Shown here: positions 50,324 to 64,000 of the stretch, in pieces
Layout: every line of letters begins with the position of its first letter
How positions within the stretch are numbered: position 1 is the first letter of the stretch
Assembly (NCBI GenBank): GCA_902798545.1
Contig: CADBWQ010000009.1
Span: 62,001-126,000, forward strand
Length of the DNA stretch: 64,000 nucleotides
Direction of reading: 5' to 3'
Source: Oscillospiraceae bacterium
Lineage (GTDB): Bacteria; Bacillota; Clostridia; Oscillospirales; Oscillospiraceae
Notes under the pieces: model-generated
Database searches by the model: none
Seen by the model: only the letters and a program-made list of their open reading frames with translations
Told to the model about the DNA's origin: nothing
Made by a program: the position numbers and the translations under genes

Positions 50324-53029
50324 ATGGCAAGAGAAATCCTGTTTGATCTCGGTAAAATGATTACCGACCGCCTTCCCTACAAGTTCGGCGTTAAGAGGCT
50401 GACCGAAGAAGACCCGGAATATATCATTCTCGACCGCGCATGTTCCAATGACGAGATCGCGGAAGTCATGCTGAAGATGGGCCTTCGTAAGCCGAAGACC
50501 ACCGCGGAGATCGCGAAGCTCACCGGCAAGTCTGAAGCGCGCGTCGTGGAGCTTCTGACCGATGCCGCCAATCATGGCATCGTGGAATACAACTGGGAGA
50601 ATCCCCGGCACGAGAAGCAGTGGTATGTGCAGCTGTTTGTCCCCGGCATTGCCGAGATGACAAACATGGTTCTGGATCAGGTTGAAAAATATCCCGAACT
50701 CGCCGAGAGCTTCAATAAGATGACCTTCCTCCCGCTGGAGGGGAAAACCCACCTGATCCCCCCCGGCGGCAACGGGATTGGCATGCATGTCATTCCCGTG
50801 GAGAAGGCAATCAATTCCGTAAACAAGTCTATCTCCATCGAACACATTTCCCACTGGCTGGACAAGTATGACGGACAGTTCTCCGTCGGATACTGTTCCT
50901 GCCGCAATGCCCGTCGTCTTTATGGCGAGGGCTCCGGTGAGATCCAGGATGACTGCTGCATCGGTCTTGGTGACTTTGCCACTTACCTGGTAGAAACCGG
51001 CAAGGGCCGTCCCATTACCAAGGAAGAAGTGCTCGAAATCTGCCAGAGAGCCGAAGACAACGGTTACGTCCACCAGATCACCAATATTGACGGTGAGGAT
51101 AAGATTTTCGGCCTCTGCAACTGCGATGTCGGCGTCTGTTTTGCTCTTCGTACGAGCCAGTATTTCAACACACCGAACCTGTCCGCTTCCGCTTACCGCG
51201 CCCATGTCAACAAGGATAACTGTGTCGCCTGCGGCAAGTGTGTGGAAGTCTGTCCCGCCGGTGCTGTCAAGCTTGGCCAGAAGCTCTGCACAAAGAACGG
51301 TGATGTCAAATACCCGCAGCAGGAGCTTCCAACCGGTCTCAAATGGGGCAAGGATAAGTGGAACCCGAACTATGTGGTCGACAACCGCAAGAACTGCCAT
51401 GAATCCGGCACGGCTCCCTGCAAGACTGCCTGCCCCGCCCATATCGCCATCCAGGGCTACATCAAGCTGGCGAAAGAAGGCCGCTATCTCGACGCCCTAA
51501 AGCTCATCAAGCAGGACAATCCCTTCCCCTCGGTCTGTGGATATGTCTGCAACCGCCGCTGTGAAGATGCCTGCACCCGTGGTGCGCTGGATAAGGCGCT
51601 TGCCATTGACGAGATCAAGAAATTCATTGCCGAACAGGACCTCAAGAGCGCAGAGCGCTATATCCCTGAGCGTCTGTATCGCCGCCCCATCGACAAGCCC
51701 TATGACCAGAAGGTCGCCATCATCGGTGCCGGCCCCGCGGGTCTGAGCTGTGCCTACTACCTGGCCCGTATGGGTTATGAGAATGTCACCGTCTTTGACC
51801 GCAATCCGCAGCCTGGCGGCATGCTCGTCATGGGTATACCCAGCTATCGTCTGGACCGTGCAGCGCTGAAGGGCGAAATCGAAGTTCTGGAGAAGATGGG
51901 TGTCCACTTCCAGATGAACACTGAAGTCGGCAGGGATGTCACAATCGAAGAGCTCCGTGCCCAGGGCTACAAGGGCTTCTATGTGGCCATCGGCGCACAG
52001 AAGAGCTCCAGGCTGAATATTCCGGGCGAAGAACTGCAGGGCGTGTTCGGCGGTGTGGACTTCCTGCGTGAGGTTAATCTGGGCAATAAACCCGAAGTCG
52101 GAAAGAAGTGTGCCGTCATCGGTGGCGGCAATGTCGCGATGGATGTCTGCCGCACGGCTGTCCGCCTCGGCGCCGAGACCTATGTGATCTACCGCCGTGG
52201 CGAGGACGAGATGCCTGCCGACAGGGAAGAAGTTGCCGAAGCCAGGGAAGAGGGCGTGAAGTTCTGCTTCCTCAACGCGCCGGTCGAGGTTCTTGGCACG
52301 GACGGCAGGGTTTGCGGTCTCAAGGTCGAGCTCATGGAACTGGGCGAGCCGGATGAAAAGGGCCGCCGCAAGCCCGTCGGCACCGGGAAATTTGAGACCA
52401 TCGAAGTCGACTCCGTCATCGCCGCAGTCGGTCAGACCATCGACTGGGGCACGCTGGATGTCGGTGCGCTTGTGACAGGCAAGAAGGGCAACGCTGTTGC
52501 CGATGCCGTCACCTACCAGACCGCGCAGAAAGATATCTTCGTCGGCGGTGACGTTTACACCGGACCGAAATTTGCCATTGACGCGATTGCCGCCGGCCGC
52601 GAGGGTGCCGAGTCTCTGCATCGCTTTGTCAATAACGGCCAGAGTCTGACAGTCGGCCGCAACCTGCGCGAGTTCTACGAGCTCAACAAGGACGATCTGG
52701 TCTTTGGCGTCGACAGCTTCGACCGTCCCGCACGTCAGCCGATCCTGCACGATACGAAGAAGGCCCGCTCTTTCGAACACGACCGCCTCACCTTCACTGA
52801 AGAGCAGGTCAAGACGGAAGCCAGCCGCTGCCTGGGCTGCGGCGTCAGCGTGGTGGACCGGAACCGCTGCATCGGCTGCGGACTGTGCACCACAAAATGC
52901 ATGTTTGACGCGATCCACCTGGAGCGCGATGTACCGGATGGCTCGACCATGATCCGCTGCGAAGATAAGGTTGGTCCTCTGCTTAAGAACGTCGCAAAGA
53001 AGAGCATTAACATCATCCGCAAGAAATAA
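50324..53029 (+). CDS. Multi-domain Fe-S/FAD oxidoreductase (glutamate synthase small subunit-like)
   Basis: 901 residues. Order: a winged-helix-like segment (TTAEIAKLTGKSEARVVELL, about 63-85), Cys-rich region (GYCSCRNAR, DDCCIGLGD, GLCNCDVGVCF), a 4Fe-4S ferredoxin motif CVACGKCVEVCPAG (about 301-314), the Fer4_20 domain (CKTACPAHIAIQGYI, VCGYVCNRRCEDAC), FAD domain IIGAGPAGLSCAYYLARMG, NAD(P) domain VIGGGNVAMDVCRTAV, and a C-terminal ferredoxin CIGCGLCTTKCMFDAI. It probably moves electrons between NAD(P)H and ferredoxin or a partner enzyme; a role like NfnB/GltD is inferred. Monocistronic, with a terminator after it. Confidence 0.88.
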   Translation: MAREILFDLGKMITDRLPYKFGVKRLTEEDPEYIILDRACSNDEIAEVMLKMGLRKPKTTAEIAKLTGKSEARVVELLTDAANHGIVEYNWENPRHEKQWYVQLFVPGIAEMTNMVLDQVEKYPELAESFNKMTFLPLEGKTHLIPPGGNGIGMHVIPVEKAINSVNKSISIEHISHWLDKYDGQFSVGYCSCRNARRLYGEGSGEIQDDCCIGLGDFATYLVETGKGRPITKEEVLEICQRAEDNGYVHQITNIDGEDKIFGLCNCDVGVCFALRTSQYFNTPNLSASAYRAHVNKDNCVACGKCVEVCPAGAVKLGQKLCTKNGDVKYPQQELPTGLKWGKDKWNPNYVVDNRKNCHESGTAPCKTACPAHIAIQGYIKLAKEGRYLDALKLIKQDNPFPSVCGYVCNRRCEDACTRGALDKALAIDEIKKFIAEQDLKSAERYIPERLYRRPIDKPYDQKVAIIGAGPAGLSCAYYLARMGYENVTVFDRNPQPGGMLVMGIPSYRLDRAALKGEIEVLEKMGVHFQMNTEVGRDVTIEELRAQGYKGFYVAIGAQKSSRLNIPGEELQGVFGGVDFLREVNLGNKPEVGKKCAVIGGGNVAMDVCRTAVRLGAETYVIYRRGEDEMPADREEVAEAREEGVKFCFLNAPVEVLGTDGRVCGLKVELMELGEPDEKGRRKPVGTGKFETIEVDSVIAAVGQTIDWGTLDVGALVTGKKGNAVADAVTYQTAQKDIFVGGDVYTGPKFAIDAIAAGREGAESLHRFVNNGQSLTVGRNLREFYELNKDDLVFGVDSFDRPARQPILHDTKKARSFEHDRLTFTEEQVKTEASRCLGCGVSVVDRNRCIGCGLCTTKCMFDAIHLERDVPDGSTMIRCEDKVGPLLKNVAKKSINIIRKK

Positions 53030-57816: not shown

Positions 57817-58533
57817 TCACACATACTGCAGTGTGATTCGAAACACAGGCCTTTCGCTCTTCTCTCCGGCGAAATAGATCCTGCCCGCGTCCTCCGTCCA
57901 GCGCAGCATCAGAGTATCGCCAAAACGTGCCTCTGTGGTGTATTCGGTGCAGATCTCCTTCAGCAGCTTTCCCTCTGCCGCCATCCCCGCACAGTCCTCT
58001 GCCAGATCGAGATATCTGGTGTTGTTCATATGACCGTTCAGATCAACAAAGCTGTAGGGCACCTCAAAGGCCTTTTCCCGATCACAGTCCTTTTTCCGGA
58101 TCGCTCCTGGCTGTGCGCTCTCTTCGCCGGTCACCACGCCTTCAATCTCCACGCCGCAGCTCTCCGGAAAGACCATTTTTCTTGTTTTCGCATCCACCAG
58201 GCACCAGATGGCACTGGCCTTCAGCAGGGGTTCGCCCGCTTCCGTTTCCAGGCTGTAGTAGCGCGGGAACAGCACGTGCATGGTTTTCCCTGGCCAGCTT
58301 TTCAGTACAATCTCCTCATCATATTCCGGCATCCGGGTTATCTCCGCCTGCTGCATCATCACGACCCAGAGGATTCCTCTGTCCAGTGTCTTCTCCCGTC
58401 CCATGCCGAGCTGCTCGGTATGCCGGATTGAGACTTCCTGCAGCAGCTTGAACAGTTCAGAGCTGCGCAATCTGCGAAACATATCCACATCCCTGCTGCG
58501 CAGTTTCAGGTGTTCCGTATAGATGCCGCTCAT
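57817..58533 (-). CDS. Acyl-ACP thioesterase
   Basis: 238 residues with two hotdog folds. N-terminal half: RLRSSELFKLLQEVSIRHTEQLG and ILWVVMMQQAEITRMPEYDEEIVLKSWP; C-terminal half: VPYSFVDLNGHMNNTRYLDLAED, the plant/bacterial acyl-ACP thioesterase (PF01643) signature with catalytic-region Asn and His. It releases an acyl chain from an acyl carrier protein. The ATG overlaps the stop of the ACP gene by 4 nt, so it acts with that dedicated carrier. Confidence 0.9.
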   Translation of the reverse strand: MSGIYTEHLKLRSRDVDMFRRLRSSELFKLLQEVSIRHTEQLGMGREKTLDRGILWVVMMQQAEITRMPEYDEEIVLKSWPGKTMHVLFPRYYSLETEAGEPLLKASAIWCLVDAKTRKMVFPESCGVEIEGVVTGEESAQPGAIRKKDCDREKAFEVPYSFVDLNGHMNNTRYLDLAEDCAGMAAEGKLLKEICTEYTTEARFGDTLMLRWTEDAGRIYFAGEKSERPVFRITLQYV

Positions 58534-58784
58534 GCCTTGTTCGGCAGGCGCTTATAGATGGCGTCCACAACATCGCCGAGGGTCTGCAGCTTCTTCCACT
58601 GCCGCTCCGGGATCTTCACATCAAACAGCGCTTCCAGCTTGCAGATCACAAGTACGAAGCCCATTGAGTCGATGGCAGTCTCCGTGTTGATTACGCTCCC
58701 CTCAGTGAGACCCTGATCTTTCATATCCGGGAAGCAGTCAAAAATCACTGTCTTCGTCTTTTCGAGCACGTCCTGTCTGGTCAT
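58530..58784 (-). CDS. Acyl carrier protein, dedicated
   Basis: 84 residues: VLEKTKTVIFDCFPDMKDQGLTEGS..., the phosphopantetheine site as TAIDSMGFVLVICKLEALFDVKIPE (Ser in DSMG, about residue 41) and VVDAIYKRL. The helix pattern is normal, but the usual DSL is DSM, so this is not the housekeeping AcpP. ATG 58784 overlaps the ligase stop as ATGA and is spaced 8 nt from AGGA; an ATG six bases earlier is too close. Confidence 0.9.
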   Translation of the reverse strand: MTRQDVLEKTKTVIFDCFPDMKDQGLTEGSVINTETAIDSMGFVLVICKLEALFDVKIPERQWKKLQTLGDVVDAIYKRLPNKA

Positions 58785-60124
58785 ATCCATGTTCCTACTT
58801 TCTGCTGGAGTTCCCAGCGTTTGATTTTGCCGCTGGCCGTTCTTGGCAACGGCTCCCTCGCAAAGATAATTTCCGTGAGCTGCTGACCGCGCGGCAGCTG
58901 CTCCATCATCGGTCTGAGTTTTTCCCAGAGGGCTTTCTTCTCTGCCGCACCGTCATAGACGAGCACCGGCCTGTCCTCCCACAGGGTGACCGCAAGTTCG
59001 GTATTTTCCAGGCATCTCATGAGTTCCGCCTCATACTCCGGCAGGAAGATCTTCGTTCCGTCCCCCAGTACCAGGATGTCCTTTTTCCGTCCGGTGATAT
59101 GCAGCCGCCCGTTCTCGTCAAAATGGCCCAGATCTCCGGTGGAGAGGATGCCGTGCCGCAGTACTTCTTCAGTATACTGCGGCCATTTGTAATACTCCTG
59201 CATCATACAGGTTGGGGCTGCGATCAGGATCTCCCCGTCCTCGGCAATCGTGACGGTGTCGTCCGGGCAGATTTCCATCGCATAGGGGTCGTCGCTCACC
59301 GAGATCGCCACGCCGGAACTGGTCTCCGTCATGCCATACCCGAAGCTCACCCGAATGCCCCTGGTTTTCACCGCCTGAAGCAGCTGCGCCGGGCAATCGC
59401 CCGCTCCGACCAGGACCAGCTTCAGTTCTTCATTGATGCAGTTCTGCCGGAGCAGAAAGCCCAGCAGCCGCGGGACTACCGATACTGCCGTCGGACGGTA
59501 GAAGTCCAGATCGTCCAGATAGTGTCTGGCACCGCGGCCCAGCGCCACAGTCGCTCCGCAGTTCAGTCCCCAGAGCAGTCCGCACACGAAGCCGAAAACA
59601 TGGCCCAGCGGCAGCATGCACAGCAGCCTGTCTTCCGGCTGCAGGGGCAGCATCGCCGAGCCGTTGTAAGCGCTCTGGCAGAGGCTGTGATCCGTCAGCA
59701 CAACGGCCTTGGCTCTTTCCGTCGTTCCGGATGTGAAGAACAGGATCTTCCGCTCTCCGTCGGTCACGCCTTGTGTCAGGTTCCCTCTCAGCTCTGTGCA
59801 GAGTTCCTCGTCCCCCCAGAGCAGATCGATATCTGTGTAGGCAATCAGTCCCCTCAGCACCGACTCCGGCGCAGATTCATCCAGCAGCACCACCTGAAGT
59901 CCGGCGATGTTCGCCGCGAAGAGCTCAATCACACATCCGAGGCTGCCGTCCGAGAGCAATCCAAGACAGGTTTTTCCGCATTTTTTCAGTTCTTCCGCCC
60001 GCTCACGTACGCGTGCGAGCAGTTCGTGGTAACTGCAATCTGCGTGTTCGTATCGCAGTGCGGTCTGATCCGGGCTCTGCGAAGCCCAGTAAGAGAGTAT
60101 ATCCTCAAAGCTGTCAAAGCGCAC
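58781..60124 (-). CDS. AMP-dependent ligase, stand-alone adenylation enzyme
   Basis: 447 residues, shorter than acyl-CoA synthetases. Core motifs: FFTSGTTERAKAVVLTDHS, LLCMLPLGHVFGFVCGLLWGL, FGYGMTETSSGVA, STGDLGHFDENG and the C-terminal Lys in LPRTASGKIKRWE. Immediately followed by an ACP and a thioesterase gene, so it most likely loads an acyl group on that ACP (fatty acyl-AMP ligase-like), by inference. Start GTG 60124 has GGAGG 7 nt upstream; the ATG frame further back contains that site and is rejected. Confidence 0.87.
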   Translation of the reverse strand: MRFDSFEDILSYWASQSPDQTALRYEHADCSYHELLARVRERAEELKKCGKTCLGLLSDGSLGCVIELFAANIAGLQVVLLDESAPESVLRGLIAYTDIDLLWGDEELCTELRGNLTQGVTDGERKILFFTSGTTERAKAVVLTDHSLCQSAYNGSAMLPLQPEDRLLCMLPLGHVFGFVCGLLWGLNCGATVALGRGARHYLDDLDFYRPTAVSVVPRLLGFLLRQNCINEELKLVLVGAGDCPAQLLQAVKTRGIRVSFGYGMTETSSGVAISVSDDPYAMEICPDDTVTIAEDGEILIAAPTCMMQEYYKWPQYTEEVLRHGILSTGDLGHFDENGRLHITGRKKDILVLGDGTKIFLPEYEAELMRCLENTELAVTLWEDRPVLVYDGAAEKKALWEKLRPMMEQLPRGQQLTEIIFAREPLPRTASGKIKRWELQQKVGTWI

Positions 60125-60166
60125 CCATATCCCTCCTTCCCTTTTCATTTGTTTCGTTCTTTCCTG

Positions 60167-60195
60167 ATATAATAATACCATAACCGGTCTGACAA
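60167..60195 (-). promoter_or_regulatory. Probable promoter of the ligase-ACP-thioesterase operon
   Basis: Minus strand TTGTCA (60195-60190) followed 17 bp later by TTATAT (60172-60167), with an alternative TATTAT 2-5 bp nearer. About 45 nt to the GTG start. Confidence 0.5.
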
Positions 60196-60272
60196 AAAAA
60201 GAGATTTTGCAAAATTCATAATTCTTTGACACATCCTCGAAATTATATAGTGAAAAAGCTGCACTTCTGTTG

Positions 60273-60278
60273 TATAAT
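60273..60278 (+). promoter_or_regulatory. -10 box of the flavoprotein operon with a small inverted repeat
   Basis: TATAAT at 60273-60278, with no good -35. It lies inside GTTGT-N9-ACAAC (60270-60288), so an activator or repressor may act here. Confidence 0.45.
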
Positions 60279-60329
60279 TAACACAACTGGGCAAAAATAA
60301 ACTTTGACCTTTATTTACGGAGGAAAAAC

Positions 60330-61718
60330 ATGGACAAAAACATTCGCATCGCAATCATCGGCGGCGGCCCCGCCGGCCTCAGCGCAGGTATGTACCTGGA
60401 GAAGAAAGGCTATGAGAACTACACCATTTTTGAGCGTCTGGATCGCGTCGGCGGCAAGTGCTGGTCTCCGCACTACAACGGACGCCGCTATGAGATGGGC
60501 GCCATCATGGGTGTTCCATCCTACTATGCCGTTCACGACGTCGAGGAGTTCTGCGGTATCACCCACGACGGTCCGCAGCTCAACCGCAACTATAAGGATG
60601 CGAGCGGTAAGGTGATCGAACCCTTTGCCCGCTCTGTCGGCAACATCATCAGGAACCCCTGGCTGCTCAAGATGAAAAAACAGCTCAAGACCTTTGGTGA
60701 ACTGCTGGAAACCAAGTACAAGGGCTATGACCTCAACGGTCACCGCGGTGTTGCCGAGGGTCGTTACGACGGCTACGCCGTGACGCCGGGCCGCGAGAAG
60801 GTCGAGGGCGTAAACCCGAACCTGAAGGATCTTGCTCTGCCGTTCAAGGAATTCTGCGAGAAGAACAAGATTCCCCTGGTTCAGAAGATCTGGATCGGAC
60901 CCTTCACTTCCTTCGGCTATGGTTACTTTGATGAAATTCCCGCTGCCTATGTTCTGAAATATCTGGACTATCAGACCTGCATGAATTTCGTGAAGGTCAA
61001 TCTTTGGACATGGAAAGAAGGCACCCAGTACATCTGGGAACAGCTGAATGATCACCTGAAGCATCCCGCCCTGCTCAACAGCACCATTGACAAGGTCGAG
61101 CGCAAGGATGGCAAGGTCTTCATCACGGTCAACGGCCAGGTTGAGGAGTTTGATAAGGTCATCGTCACCGCTCCGCTCTACATTCCCAATAAACGTGATG
61201 ACGGCCAGAAGGGCATGGTCGAGTACTTCGATGCCCGCGAGGATGAAAAGTCCCTCTTCTCCAAGATCGACTATGAGCGCTATGACGTTCAGGCCTTCCT
61301 CACCAGGCCTGAGGACCACCCCGAAATCTCTTACTACGTGTTTGACAACATGGTTCCCGAGAAGCTCGGCCACCTGATGGTCTATTATCGCCGCTGGAGA
61401 GATCAGATTGACCAGGTCATTACCACCTATGCGCTGCGCAAGCACAAGAACTCCGCCGAGATCCCCTACGATACCTGCCGCCAGATGGTGCAGGATGACC
61501 TCAAGACCATGGGCAACCCGGCCAAGGAGATCATCAATGAATGGTCCGTGTACTACTTCCCCCATGTTTTCACCAAGGACTATGCCGACGGCTGGTATGA
61601 CAAGGTTGAAGCCATGCAGGGCAAGTACGACACCTACTATGCCGGTGAAGTCATGAGCTTCGGCGACATGGATGAGACCGCAGAGTACTCCCGCGAGCTG
61701 GTCGAACGCTTCTTCTGA
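60330..61718 (+). CDS. FAD-dependent oxidoreductase, amine-oxidase/protoporphyrinogen-oxidase-like
   Basis: 462 residues. FAD-binding start IRIAIIGGGPAGLSAGMYLEKKG, then FERLDRVGGKCWS; later FDKVIVTAPLYIP and a C-terminal YAGEVMSFGDMDETAEYSREL closing the FAD site. The central part (NFVKVNLWTWKEG, RRWRDQIDQVIT) belongs to the flavin amine oxidase/NAD(P)-binding class without a named substrate. GGAGG stands 8 nt before the ATG. It is divergent from the ligase-ACP-thioesterase operon and followed, past an intrinsic terminator, by a second flavoprotein gene. Confidence 0.82.
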   Translation: MDKNIRIAIIGGGPAGLSAGMYLEKKGYENYTIFERLDRVGGKCWSPHYNGRRYEMGAIMGVPSYYAVHDVEEFCGITHDGPQLNRNYKDASGKVIEPFARSVGNIIRNPWLLKMKKQLKTFGELLETKYKGYDLNGHRGVAEGRYDGYAVTPGREKVEGVNPNLKDLALPFKEFCEKNKIPLVQKIWIGPFTSFGYGYFDEIPAAYVLKYLDYQTCMNFVKVNLWTWKEGTQYIWEQLNDHLKHPALLNSTIDKVERKDGKVFITVNGQVEEFDKVIVTAPLYIPNKRDDGQKGMVEYFDAREDEKSLFSKIDYERYDVQAFLTRPEDHPEISYYVFDNMVPEKLGHLMVYYRRWRDQIDQVITTYALRKHKNSAEIPYDTCRQMVQDDLKTMGNPAKEIINEWSVYYFPHVFTKDYADGWYDKVEAMQGKYDTYYAGEVMSFGDMDETAEYSRELVERFF

Positions 61719-61728
61719 TCGGCATAAG

Positions 61729-61760
61729 CAGGGGCGGTTAGAATGCCGTCCCTGTTTTTT
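61729..61760 (+). terminator. Intrinsic terminator between two flavoprotein genes
   Basis: CAGGGGCGG (61729-61737) pairs with CCGTCCCTG (61746-61754) with one G-T pair, then six T residues. It lies 40 nt before the next start, so downstream expression may depend on read-through. Confidence 0.82.
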
Positions 61761-61800
61761 CAGTAATCTGCAGTAACCTGTAATACGAAAGGAAACATGT

Positions 61801-63357
61801 ATGAAATTCTACAAAGACCATTACGACGTCGTAATCATCGGCGGTGCACTGGCCGGTATGTCCGCCTGCCTGCAGCTGCAGGCCTGGGGTATCAAGGACA
61901 TCCTGATCCTTGAAAAGCATAACATGCCTGGCGGTCTTGCCACCGACTTCGTGCGCAATGGGTTTGAGATCGAAGCCACCCTGCATGAGATGATGTCCAT
62001 CGGTCAGCCCGGCAAGCGGCTCAAGGTCGGCCAGTTCTTTGACGATATGGGCGTTAATATCGACTGGCTCCCGGTCCATGAGTGCTACCGTGTGGCACTG
62101 CCGAATTCCGGCATTGACAAGATTTTGCACCATGACTACGACGGCAGCTACACAACTGTTGCCAAAGAGATTGACGAAGTCTGTCCCGGGACCTATGAGA
62201 AGGTCCATGAGCTTATGCTTCTCTGCCGCCGTGTCTACGACAGTATGAACGTTCTCTCCGTCACTCCGATGAGCAAGGTGCAGATGCTTCTGAAGCATCC
62301 CGACTTTGTCAAGACCGTCGGTTACACCGCCACGGAAGTGATCAACACCTTTGACCTGCCGAAAAAGGCCGTCGAGATGCTGACCCCGTACTGGATCTAT
62401 GTCGGTAACCGCATGGACGATCTGCCCTTTACGATCTATGCCTTCCTGATGGCCGACTACTTCACCGGCAGCTATGTCTGCCGCGGCTTCAGCCATGAGA
62501 TGAGCATGAAACTCCAGGCCAAGTGTGAGGAGCAGGGCGCACAGTATGAGTTCAATCAGGAAGTTGAAAAGATCCTTGTCCGCGATGGGAAGGTCTACGG
62601 TGTCCGCACCGCCCGTGGAGATGAGATTCACTGCGACTACGTGATCTCCGGTCCCTATCCCAATAAGGTCTATTCCCAGATGATCGAGCCGCTTACCGAG
62701 GTACCTACCGGTGCGATCAAGATGATCAATAACCGCAAGCTCTCCGTGACTCCGGTCTCCGTCATCATGGTCATCGAAGGCACCCCGGAGGAGAACGGCA
62801 TCATCAACTACTCTACCTTCTCCGGCACCACCATGGACACCAACAAGATCTGGGAGAACTATTCCAACATCACCGAGCCCTACAACTATATCACTACCAT
62901 CTGCCTCAATTATGCCAATCCCACCCTGCCGGAGGGGTATACACAGCTCTCCATTACGGCTCTGGTTCCCTCCAAGCCCTTCGAGAATATCCGGGAAGAG
63001 GATTACTTCGATCTCAAGCGCCGCCTCGCCAGCGAGATGATTGACGAATGCATCAAGATCACCAAGGTAGACTTCCGCCCCCGCATCACCGAGATTGAAG
63101 TCACTACCCCGATGACCGTGGCCCACTATGTCGGTGCCTGGAAGGGCAATATTTACGGCTATCTGCATTCCATGGAGGACCATGCGGTCGCCCGTCTCCA
63201 GATGAAGGAGAAAGACCACTTCATCGATGGTCTGGAATTTGCCGGTGCCCACGGTATGAGCGGTGACGGCATGGGTCCGCAGATTACCAACGGCCGTGCA
63301 GCTGCCAAGGCAGTTCGCGAAGATCTTGAGAGAAAGAAGGAGGCCGCGAAGAAATGA
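61801..63357 (+). CDS. FAD-dependent oxidoreductase, phytoene desaturase-like
   Basis: 518 residues: YDVVIIGGALAGMSACLQLQAWG and ILEKHNMPGGLATDF (FAD domain; the phytoene-desaturase class has this PGG), ATLHEMMSIGQPGKRL, a long variable centre, and C-terminal GAHGMSGDGMGPQITNGRAAAKAV for the FAD ribityl site. Such enzymes desaturate or saturate isoprenoid or acyl chains. AAAGGA supports ATG 61801. The stop overlaps the ATG of the next reductase gene by 4 nt, which suggests an electron-transfer pair. Confidence 0.83.
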   Translation: MKFYKDHYDVVIIGGALAGMSACLQLQAWGIKDILILEKHNMPGGLATDFVRNGFEIEATLHEMMSIGQPGKRLKVGQFFDDMGVNIDWLPVHECYRVALPNSGIDKILHHDYDGSYTTVAKEIDEVCPGTYEKVHELMLLCRRVYDSMNVLSVTPMSKVQMLLKHPDFVKTVGYTATEVINTFDLPKKAVEMLTPYWIYVGNRMDDLPFTIYAFLMADYFTGSYVCRGFSHEMSMKLQAKCEEQGAQYEFNQEVEKILVRDGKVYGVRTARGDEIHCDYVISGPYPNKVYSQMIEPLTEVPTGAIKMINNRKLSVTPVSVIMVIEGTPEENGIINYSTFSGTTMDTNKIWENYSNITEPYNYITTICLNYANPTLPEGYTQLSITALVPSKPFENIREEDYFDLKRRLASEMIDECIKITKVDFRPRITEIEVTTPMTVAHYVGAWKGNIYGYLHSMEDHAVARLQMKEKDHFIDGLEFAGAHGMSGDGMGPQITNGRAAAKAVREDLERKKEAAKK

Positions 63358-64000
63358 GTATTAAAGTCAAAGGATTTCTGCAGGACGTCGGCGGAGCCTC
63401 CCGCGTCACAAAACTGAGAGAGCAGAATTTTGCCAACGGCTCCACCATCATTGATCCAAAGGACCCGATCCGTGAGCTGGCGGATAAGCTTCATCCGGAG
63501 CATATGACCTTCAGAGTCGTAGATATCCGCGAAGCCTCCCCGACCTCCCGTATCTTCCGTTTTGAGTCGGCGGACGGTCATATCCCGGTGTTCCAAAGCG
63601 GCCAGTATGTAAACTTCCGCCTGAAGATCGGCGACAGCGTCCTTTCCCGCCCTTATACCATTTCCTCTGCTCCCTATGAGGCCAGGGGCGAGCACCCCTT
63701 CTTTGAGATTACGGTCCGCCGCAATGTTCCATATCTTGTACCGGACTATCTCTTTGAAAACGTGAAGGTCGGCGATGAGCTCCATGGCGCACTTCCTTTC
63801 GGTTTCTTCTACTGGGAGCCTCTTCGGGACAGCAAAGAGATTGTCGCTCTGGCCGGAGGAAGCGGCATCACCCCCTTCCATTCCATGGCTAAAGAGATTA
63901 TGAGCGGCAAGATGAAGGGCTGCAAGCTTACCATTCTCTACGGTTCTGTCAAAGCCAACGACATTGTCCTCAAGGACGAGCTTGACGCCATCGAGAAGGC
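63354..64000 (+). CDS. Ferredoxin/flavodoxin reductase-type FAD-NAD(P) protein (partial, 3' cut by window)
   Basis: 215 residues are visible. After a 45-residue N-terminal extension comes the FNR-type FAD domain: FRFESADGHIPVFQSGQYVNF, LSRPYTISSAP (flavin RxYS/T motif), YLFENVKVGDEL, GALPFGFF, and the start of the NAD(P) domain LAGGSGITPFHSMAKEIM, LTILYGSVKANDI. Its ATG overlaps the stop of the phytoene-desaturase-like gene (ATGA). It likely feeds electrons from NAD(P)H to that flavoprotein or a C-terminal [2Fe-2S] domain outside the window (inference). Confidence 0.88.
   Translation, partial: MSIKVKGFLQDVGGASRVTKLREQNFANGSTIIDPKDPIRELADKLHPEHMTFRVVDIREASPTSRIFRFESADGHIPVFQSGQYVNFRLKIGDSVLSRPYTISSAPYEARGEHPFFEITVRRNVPYLVPDYLFENVKVGDELHGALPFGFFYWEPLRDSKEIVALAGGSGITPFHSMAKEIMSGKMKGCKLTILYGSVKANDIVLKDELDAIEK

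What the first reader, a model, noticed from the sequence alone, without database searches (positions are those of the whole stretch)
57817..64000. Acyl-ligase/ACP/thioesterase operon facing a flavoprotein operon
Three coupled genes would load an acyl chain on a dedicated ACP and release it. Divergently, an amine-oxidase-like protein, a phytoene-desaturase-like protein and a ferredoxin-reductase-like protein provide redox steps. No ketosynthase is present, so the system would modify, not build, a chain: for example desaturation or saturation of an ACP-bound acyl group. I know no described pathway with this set.
Basis: inference. Interest (0 to 1): 0.7.

Follow-up and report, generated by a model that had tools for sequence, protein, structure and literature searches.

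The report
Rumen bacterial polyunsaturated-fat hydrogenation gene cluster
Six neighbouring genes in uncultured gut bacteria, many of them from cattle, sheep, goats and deer, look like a complete kit that picks up polyunsaturated plant fat, moves and then removes a double bond, and lets it go, which could explain at gene level how the rumen turns healthy fats into trans and saturated fats.

Summary
The six genes are real, and the two operons behave as one conserved unit. Of the 80 best PAI relatives kept from a genome scan (335 found), 62 show the same divergent six-gene order; 17 are cut by a contig end; in one the acyl trio lies about 10 kb away. No printed title among the 80 names a non-ruminant host. 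The cluster recurs in another family at 39-59% identity, and that PAI is sister to the characterised C. acnes enzyme. Two blocks co-evolve: CrtI-like protein with reductase (r = 0.97) and ligase/ACP/thioesterase (r = 0.81-0.89). Best reading: polyunsaturated fatty acid biohydrogenation. The ligase loads the acid on a dedicated ACP, PAI makes a conjugated diene (predicted trans-10,cis-12), the CrtI-like flavoprotein saturates one double bond with NAD(P)H electrons from the 2Fe-2S reductase, and the thioesterase releases the product. ACP tethering and the isomer are inferred. PAI homologues in rumen MAGs were already reported (PMC10019597); ten literature searches showed me no description of the cluster.

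The parts
57817..58533 (-). TE: FatA/FatB-type acyl-ACP thioesterase, 238 aa; predicted to release the modified acyl chain from the ACP
   Evidence: Acyl-ACP_TE 78.6 bits and Acyl-ACP_TE_C 35.9 bits; PDB 2own E 6.5e-12; NxHxN motif in 69 of 71 near-full relatives
58530..58790 (-). ACP: dedicated acyl carrier protein, 86 aa, attachment serine in DSM
   Evidence: NCBIfam ACP models, best E 3.4e-11, all below cut-offs; PF00550 20.0 bits against cut-off 20.8; DS[LMIV] in 72 of 72 relatives; the own-genome PF00550 search reported one match, on contig C4, not this ACP
58781..60124 (-). LIG: AMP-binding acyl ligase, 447 aa from GTG 60124; predicted to load a free fatty acid on the ACP
   Evidence: AMP-binding 127.1 bits; among 71 near-full relatives [ST]SGT[TS] in 70, [ST]GD in 71 and the loose pattern G[KR][IVLM] in 71
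60125..60329 (.). Divergent promoter region; TATAGTGA element 19 nt before the TATAAT of an extended -10 (TGTTGTATAAT) on the PAI side
   Evidence: Most shared 8-mer ATTATACA (reverse complement TGTATAAT) in 35 of 73 intergenic regions, mean shuffled maximum 8.4; spacing
60330..61718 (+). PAI: FAD-dependent polyunsaturated fatty acid (linoleate) isomerase family, 462 aa
   Evidence: 2B9W E 4e-132; 53% identity over 416 aa; AF2 model pLDDT 75, best PDB match 2b9w TM 0.85/0.93
61801..63357 (+). FAD2: CrtI/phytoene-desaturase-like flavoprotein, 518 aa; predicted conjugated-diene or enoic-acid reductase (saturase)
   Evidence: crtI_fam 97.6 bits, cut-off 238.1; AF2 pLDDT 86.5, closest solved fold 4rep TM 0.77; RED-like neighbour at 19 of 19 places; co-evolves with RED r = 0.97
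63354..64000 (+). RED: NAD(P)H reductase with FAD, NAD and C-terminal 2Fe-2S domains, 396 aa; leaves the window and ends at about 64544
   Evidence: CX4CX2C in 68 of 68 near-full relatives
50324..53029 (+). GltD/NfnB-like iron-sulfur flavoprotein, 901 aa; not in the cluster here, possible accessory electron donor (relatives join the cluster elsewhere)
   Evidence: ORF, class judged by likeness to the Pfam-scanned L021 and L031 proteins; a relative of this class lies within 1.5 kb downstream of RED in 21 of 63 loci and beside distant PAI relatives in 4 of 5 genomes

Best explanation
The six genes form one pathway for biohydrogenation (isomerisation and reduction) of dietary polyunsaturated C18 fatty acids in anaerobic, mostly ruminant, gut bacteria. 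Predicted steps: (1) LIG adenylates a free PUFA such as linoleic acid and loads it on the dedicated ACP [motifs shown; substrate and acceptor inferred]. [quoted passage not shown] product and mechanism inferred from recalled PAI work]. (3) FAD2 reduces one double bond of the conjugated diene (predicted product trans-10-18:1, possibly 18:0) with electrons from RED (NAD(P)H -> FAD -> 2Fe-2S -> FAD2) [pairing shown; reaction inferred]. (4) TE hydrolyses the acyl-ACP and releases the trans or saturated acid [family shown; substrate inferred]. The benefit would be detoxification of PUFA and an electron sink.
For: PAI-family membership. Conserved divergent six-gene order in 62 of 80 loci, the other 18 accounted for. 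Presence/absence coupling in 37 genus genomes: 22 with both, 1 PAI only, 0 ACP only, 14 neither; Fisher p 2.5e-9, not corrected for kinship. The same cluster in another family (G696), whose PAI is sister to the characterised P. acnes enzyme (64% identity, support 99/96). FAD2-RED r = 0.97 and the trio r = 0.81-0.89 in 58 loci. FAD2-like genes have a RED-like neighbour at 19 of 19 places in 16 of 391 genomes of the class, own included, which argues for NAD(P)H-driven reduction. A CrtI-like ORF overlaps a PAI homologue in Photobacterium sp. DA100. Of 80 titles 31 name a ruminant host, 38 carry RUG and 2 RUI labels, 9 show no host; none as printed (titles are cut) names a non-ruminant host (my count; that RUG means rumen uncultured genome is recalled). 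I see no ketosynthase among the six genes.
Against: No biochemical data. P. acnes PAI expressed in E. coli or L. lactis converts linoleic acid without the other five genes (PMC2885616), so a private ACP is not intrinsically required. The rumen-type PAIs carry two insertions (about 26 and 10 residues) and substitutions such as Tyr335 where P. acnes has Gly, so the isomer may differ. FAD2 is below the cut-offs of all 24 NCBIfam models it matches, so its substrate is not fixed by homology. The ligase could make acyl-CoA. PAI relatives at about 30% identity sit beside a GltD-like gene without a FAD2/RED match, so the wider family may do other reactions. Nearly all loci are MAG contigs; G016 has a broken PAI and no trio found, G496 only a PAI remnant.
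Confidence: 0.72

Rival explanations
1. Biohydrogenation acts on free acids: PAI and FAD2-RED convert free linoleic acid and CLA, while LIG/ACP/TE handle fatty acids separately (for example making acyl-ACP for membrane lipids and adjusting the pool), co-localised because both respond to incoming PUFA.
For: P. acnes PAI works on linoleic acid when expressed alone (PMC2885616, abstract start in the listing, passages). Arg86, matching the P. acnes residue recalled to bind the carboxylate, is conserved in the PAI clade (Gln in the distant Photobacterium protein). The two blocks evolve partly independently (cross-block r 0.41-0.55). Of 16 genomes of the class with FAD2-RED pairs, 13 show no PAI match in the fetched stretch.
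Against: A ligase plus a hydrolase on the same private ACP is a futile cycle unless something happens between them (logic, not a test); no genus genome has the ACP without PAI.
Confidence: 0.25
2. Same machinery, other outcome: the isomerase gives a different conjugated isomer (for example cis-9,trans-11 or a linolenate-derived one), so the cluster belongs to the trans-11 rather than the trans-10 pathway.
For: Insertions and substitutions against P. acnes PAI; trans-11 isomers are usually the major rumen intermediates (PMC6037716, passages).
Against: 53% identity to the P. acnes trans-10,cis-12 enzyme, in one strongly supported clade with it.
Confidence: 0.2
3. The flavoproteins act on another unsaturated lipid (isoprenoid, carotenoid or a plant secondary compound), with the PAI homology reflecting fold ancestry only.
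For: CrtI-family fold of FAD2; FAD2-RED pairs occur next to varied genes.
Against: PAI is over 50% identical to a fatty acid isomerase; the FatA/FatB-type thioesterase, ACP and acyl ligase all point to fatty acyl substrates.
Confidence: 0.08

Closest known systems
PAI, polyunsaturated fatty acid (linoleate) isomerase of Cutibacterium (Propionibacterium) acnes, PDB 2B9W-2BAC
   Same: Sequence (53% over 416 aa), predicted fold (TM 0.85/0.93), FAD motif, and the residues aligned with P. acnes Arg88, Phe168 and Phe193 (roles recalled)
   Different: Here 462 aa with two insertions and embedded in a six-gene cluster; PAI has been studied as a single enzyme on linoleic acid
Rumen biohydrogenation by Butyrivibrio fibrisolvens (linoleate isomerase; octadecadienoate / CLA reductase)
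   Same: Predicted chemistry: isomerise, then reduce
   Different: A genome paper found no linoleate isomerase gene in Butyrivibrio (PMC6249431 passages); the B. fibrisolvens CLA reductase sequence (Fukuda 2007, seen only as a reference) could not be compared here; no ACP involvement seen in the passages read
CrtI-type phytoene desaturases, carotenoid isomerase CrtISO and animal retinol saturase (the last recalled)
   Same: Fold family of FAD2; retinol saturase is a recalled precedent for saturation by this family
   Different: FAD2 is below every model cut-off (97.6 against 238.1 bits for crtI_fam) and has a 2Fe-2S NAD(P)H reductase gene beside it at every place examined
Lactobacillus plantarum CLA-HY/DH/DC/ER pathway (recalled)
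   Same: Multi-enzyme saturation of linoleate by gut bacteria
   Different: Works through hydroxy and oxo fatty acids (recalled); none of the six genes here is of those families by Pfam
Acyl-ACP synthetase (AasS) type ligases
   Same: Adenylation domain, possible loading of exogenous fatty acid on ACP
   Different: Closest named matches are MenE and long-chain acyl-CoA ligases, far below cut-offs; the acceptor is untested

Membership tests
P. acnes-type PUFA isomerase (PAI) | Full-length homology to PAI above any other solved flavoprotein | tested here: met
   E 4e-132 against 2.6e-08 for the next chain; 53% over 416 aa
P. acnes-type PUFA isomerase (PAI) | Three-domain PAI fold | tested here: met
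   AF2 model pLDDT 75.3, Foldseek best 2b9w TM 0.85/0.93, next TM 0.70
P. acnes-type PUFA isomerase (PAI) | Residues aligned with P. acnes Arg88, Phe168, Phe193 (channel and carboxylate contacts, roles recalled) | tested here: met
   R86, F195, F220 identical in A2; also in G696
P. [quoted passage not shown]
   Needs enzyme assay
Phytoene desaturase (CrtI) family TIGR02734 | Score above the curated cut-off | tested here: not met
   97.6 against 238.1 bits; fold shared (4rep TM 0.77), so a distant relative only
Acyl-ACP thioesterase (PF01643) | Score above cut-off and NxH motif | tested here: met
   78.6 against 23.7 bits; motif in 69 of 71 near-full relatives
Acyl carrier protein (PF00550) | Phosphopantetheine serine and score above cut-off | tested here: inconclusive
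   Serine present, DS[LMIV] 72 of 72; score 20.0 against 20.8
AMP-binding acyl ligase (PF00501) | Adenylation core motifs and score above cut-off | tested here: met
   127.1 against 29.9 bits; three patterns in at least 70 of 71 near-full relatives
Acyl-ACP synthetase (rather than acyl-CoA ligase) | Uses holo-ACP as acceptor | not testable with these tools
   Only suggested by the gene overlap and co-evolution with the ACP
2Fe-2S ferredoxin-type NAD(P)H reductase | FAD, NAD and 2Fe-2S domains | tested here: met
   CX4CX2C 68 of 68
Rumen PUFA biohydrogenation system | Isomerase plus reductase activity on C18 PUFA in a rumen organism | not testable with these tools
   Ruminant origin supported by titles of relatives; activity unknown

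The most novel reading that the evidence does not exclude
A private carrier-protein cycle for fatty acid biohydrogenation: PUFA are captured on a dedicated ACP, isomerised and saturated there by two flavoproteins, and released. It is spread among uncultured ruminant gut bacteria of several families (partly by exchange of modules) and supplies the missing genes of the rumen trans-10 pathway linked to milk fat depression. The well-known P. acnes isomerase would be a lone offshoot of this pathway.
Probability: 0.42. Interest if true: 0.9.

Novelty: new variant of a known kind. Interest (0 to 1): 0.78.

Why it matters
Ruminal biohydrogenation sets how much trans and saturated fat reaches milk and meat, and trans-10 intermediates are tied to milk fat depression. 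[quoted passage not shown] A conserved set naming candidate isomerase, reductase, electron donor, carrier, loader and releaser makes the question testable with six recombinant proteins and gives marker genes for metatranscriptomes. It also raises a new enzymological question: is biohydrogenation ACP-bound?

Tried and rejected
Idea that the roughly 26-residue insertion of rumen-type PAI is an ACP-docking element: not supported, because G696 has the full ligase/ACP/TE trio with a PAI lacking nearly all of that insertion and all of the other.

Idea that L100 (Lachnospiraceae UBA6987) lacks the trio: rejected, it lies about 10 kb upstream of PAI on the same contig.

Worry that stop codons in 22 of 76 ligase matches mean broken genes: in 19 the stops lie only in the leader before the likely start; in L097 and L099 only beyond the C-terminus; in L110 one lies near residue 471 of 483, not resolved. 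For the mirror-tree such letters were set to X.

Search of flanks for a universally conserved seventh gene: none found; one recurrent related neighbour is the GltD-like iron-sulfur flavoprotein, 21 of 63 downstream of RED. A pattern scan of viral contigs found no PAI relative. Plasmid search for a cultured rumen carrier: only hits under 60% identity, none in Butyrivibrio among those listed. Whether P. acnes has the other five genes was not tested. VIA-align was not available. The genome-contig scan kept the best 80 of 335 places, so weaker PAI relatives outside ruminants may be unseen. The mirror-tree r values are not corrected for shared phylogeny. Host counts were made by eye.
Full report
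What is there. The window is a stretch of contig C9 of a 3.03 Mb genome in 50 contigs. The reported region holds two divergent operons. On the minus strand are an AMP-binding ligase (58781-60124, 447 aa from the likely GTG start), an ACP (58530-58790) and a FatA/FatB-type thioesterase (57817-58533), with 10- and 4-nt overlaps. On the plus strand are two FAD proteins (60330-61718 and 61801-63357) and a reductase (from 63354) that runs out of the window and ends at about 64544. The reductase has FAD, NAD and C-terminal 2Fe-2S domains. Family assignments are from Pfam and NCBIfam and PDB sequences.

The first FAD protein is the key. By phmmer its best solved relative is 2B9W, the P. acnes polyunsaturated fatty acid isomerase PAI, at E 4e-132; the next chain is at 2.6e-08. 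Aligned, they share 53% identity over 416 residues, with insertions of about 26 and 10 residues in the present protein. An AlphaFold2 model (pLDDT 75.3) matches 2b9w at TM 0.85 (query) and 0.93 (target), with the next fold at 0.70. P. [quoted passage not shown] The residues aligned with P. acnes Arg88, Phe168 and Phe193 are conserved; that these line the substrate channel is recalled from the structure paper, which I did not read.

The second FAD protein is a distant CrtI-family member (crtI_fam 97.6 bits against a cut-off of 238.1; closest solved fold 4rep, TM 0.77). Its partner is the 2Fe-2S reductase. A Ligilactobacillus plasmid has a similar pair behind a TetR gene (similarity to FAD2 and RED). 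An NAD(P)H-2Fe-2S donor in an anaerobe argues for reduction, not desaturation (inference).

Conservation of the two operons together. In 37 genus genomes (own included), ACP and PAI occur together in 22, PAI alone in 1 (G016, where PAI is broken and no trio was found), ACP alone in 0 and neither in 14 (Fisher p 2.5e-9, not corrected for kinship). Among the 14, G005 has a thioesterase orthologue (73%) and G020 and G022 have FAD2 and RED orthologues (71-91%) without PAI or ACP; each of these matches is cut by a contig end. In G002 the trio and PAI lie on different contigs. A scan of genome contigs with a PAI alignment found 335 places encoding relatives; the best 80 were kept. Of these 80, 62 show the order TE- ACP- LIG- PAI+ FAD2+ RED+; 17 lack one or more genes where the contig ends; one (L100) has the trio about 10 kb further out on the same contig. 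Inserts between LIG and PAI were seen in L063 (7.3 kb), L096 and L111 (1.2-1.4 kb). Motifs are kept in the near-full relatives: ACP DS[LMIV] 72 of 72, ligase patterns at least 70 of 71, TE NxHxN 69 of 71, RED CX4CX2C 68 of 68. Stop codons in 22 of 76 ligase matches lie, in 19, only in the leader before the start.

Two co-evolving blocks. In 58 loci with all six genes near full length, distance matrices correlate at 0.97 for FAD2-RED and 0.81-0.89 within LIG/ACP/TE, but 0.41-0.55 across blocks and with PAI (not corrected for phylogeny). In L042, L053 and L062 the PAI (88-91%) and trio resemble those of the window's close relatives while FAD2 and RED are both of a 51-56% type, as if swapped as a pair. 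PAI is the slowest-evolving member (mean distance 0.14 against 0.30-0.47). So separate modules are held together by position.

Where it occurs. Of the 80 titles, 31 name a ruminant (roe deer, red deer, goat, sheep, dairy cattle, water buffalo, yak), 38 carry RUG and 2 RUI labels, and 9 show no host; none, as printed (titles are cut), names a non-ruminant host (my count; that RUG stands for rumen uncultured genomes is recalled). Titles assign loci to Oscillospiraceae/Ruminococcaceae, Lachnospiraceae, Mogibacterium, Coriobacteriaceae/Coriobacteriales and unclassified Clostridia. Close PAI relatives are rare elsewhere: 2 of 397 other genomes drawn from the phylum reach E <= 1e-40, both at about 30% identity. 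A second version was found in G696, of another family of the class: the full six-gene divergent cluster with PAI at 59% (aligned residues; 54% by BLAST), FAD2 and RED at 56%, LIG and TE at 44% and ACP at 39% identity to the window's. In the tree (27 rows) the P. acnes enzyme is sister to the G696 PAI (64% identity, support 99/96), and this pair is joined to the rumen clade at 100/100 (the outgroup branches are long). The characterised isomerase therefore falls inside the clade whose other sampled members sit in this cluster. Independently, in Photobacterium sp. DA100 a CrtI-like ORF overlaps a PAI homologue (29% identity) by at least 28 nt, judged by its nearest in-frame start.

Accessory electron carrier. 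A roughly 900-aa GltD/NfnB-like iron-sulfur flavoprotein lies within 1.5 kb downstream of RED in 21 of 63 loci with enough flank, on the TE side in several others, and beside distant PAI relatives in 4 of 5 genomes. The window has one at 50324-53029, about 5 kb outside the cluster. It may supply electrons from ferredoxin or NADPH (inference).

How it most likely works. LIG captures a free PUFA (toxic, abundant after plant lipid hydrolysis) and loads it on the private ACP; PAI isomerises it to a conjugated diene; FAD2, fed by RED from NAD(P)H, saturates one double bond; TE releases the product. Shown here: gene families, catalytic motifs, linkage, co-evolution, host habitat by titles. Inferred: substrates, the order of steps, the ACP-bound state during the flavin steps, the isomer. 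The strongest argument for ACP-bound chemistry is logical: a loader and a releaser on the same private carrier are a futile cycle unless a modification happens between them, and the conserved modifying enzymes nearby are PAI and FAD2-RED. The strongest counter-argument is that P. acnes PAI works on linoleic acid when expressed alone.

What is known. PMC10019597 (abstract, passages and methods section 2.6 read) searched rumen metagenomes by BLASTp (at least 40% identity) and reported PAI homologues in 7 of 228 MAGs (two Lachnospiraceae, one Oscillospiraceae, four unclassified); [quoted passage not shown] So PAI-type genes in rumen MAGs are not new. PMC7339423 (passages) states that rumen bacteria forming trans-10 intermediates are not unambiguously identified and that the relevance of C. 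acnes is questionable because of its very low abundance. PMC6249431 (passages) found no linoleate isomerase gene in B. fibrisolvens INBov1 or the other Butyrivibrio species. PMC4478896 (passages) depicts a fatty acid oxidoreductase in butyrivibrios from biochemistry. In ten literature searches I saw no paper describing an isomerase/CrtI-like/reductase cluster or an ACP-linked biohydrogenation route; I judged by listings and the passages read, and subscription journals are mostly not held.

Verdict. Observation confirmed; interpretation partly supported and sharpened. I rate it a new variant of a known kind: a known isomerase family and a known process, but a cluster and a carrier-protein logic that I did not find described. 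Confidence that it is a PUFA isomerisation-reduction pathway is about 0.8; with the ACP-tethered mechanism as written, lower.

Noticed in passing
window 50324-53029 (+): 901-aa GltD/NfnB-like iron-sulfur flavoprotein with an extended N-terminal part; relatives recur beside some FAD2-RED pairs and PAI relatives
   Followed up: partly
L015 8890-11668; L031 3145-8639 and 8999-11783: Paralogous CrtI-like + 2Fe-2S reductase pairs (about 31-42% identity) in the same genus, in L031 with a GltD-like gene between two pairs: possibly saturases for other unsaturated lipids
   Followed up: partly
L144-L146, L148-L150, L155: TetR- or GntR-type regulators lie next to many FAD2-RED pairs (class judged by eye from sequence; annotated as TetR/AcrR in L155), suggesting fatty-acid-responsive control
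   Followed up: no
L152 3556-4179; L153 2721-4361: A PlsY-like acyltransferase (judged by eye, not searched) and an acyl ligase (28% to LIG) lie next to FAD2-RED pairs in two other families, hinting at a general acyl-lipid role
   Followed up: no
L157, L163-L166: PAI relatives at about 30% identity in other genomes of the phylum have a GltD-like gene nearby (4 of 5 genomes) with no FAD2/RED match found in the fetched stretch: an unexplored subfamily
   Followed up: partly
L154 7310-10167 (Photobacterium sp. DA100 plasmid pDA100): CrtI-like ORF overlapping a PAI homologue by at least 28 nt in a gammaproteobacterium
   Followed up: partly
L159 7191-9501 (G016); L144 10458-10736 (G496): Broken or remnant PAI genes, suggesting loss of the pathway in some lineages or assembly error
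   Followed up: no
window 60125-60329 and 72 related intergenic regions: TATAGTGA element 19 nt upstream of the TATAAT of an extended -10 (TGTTGTATAAT) on the PAI side, seen in several of the relatives; may be a tandem promoter or an operator
   Followed up: no
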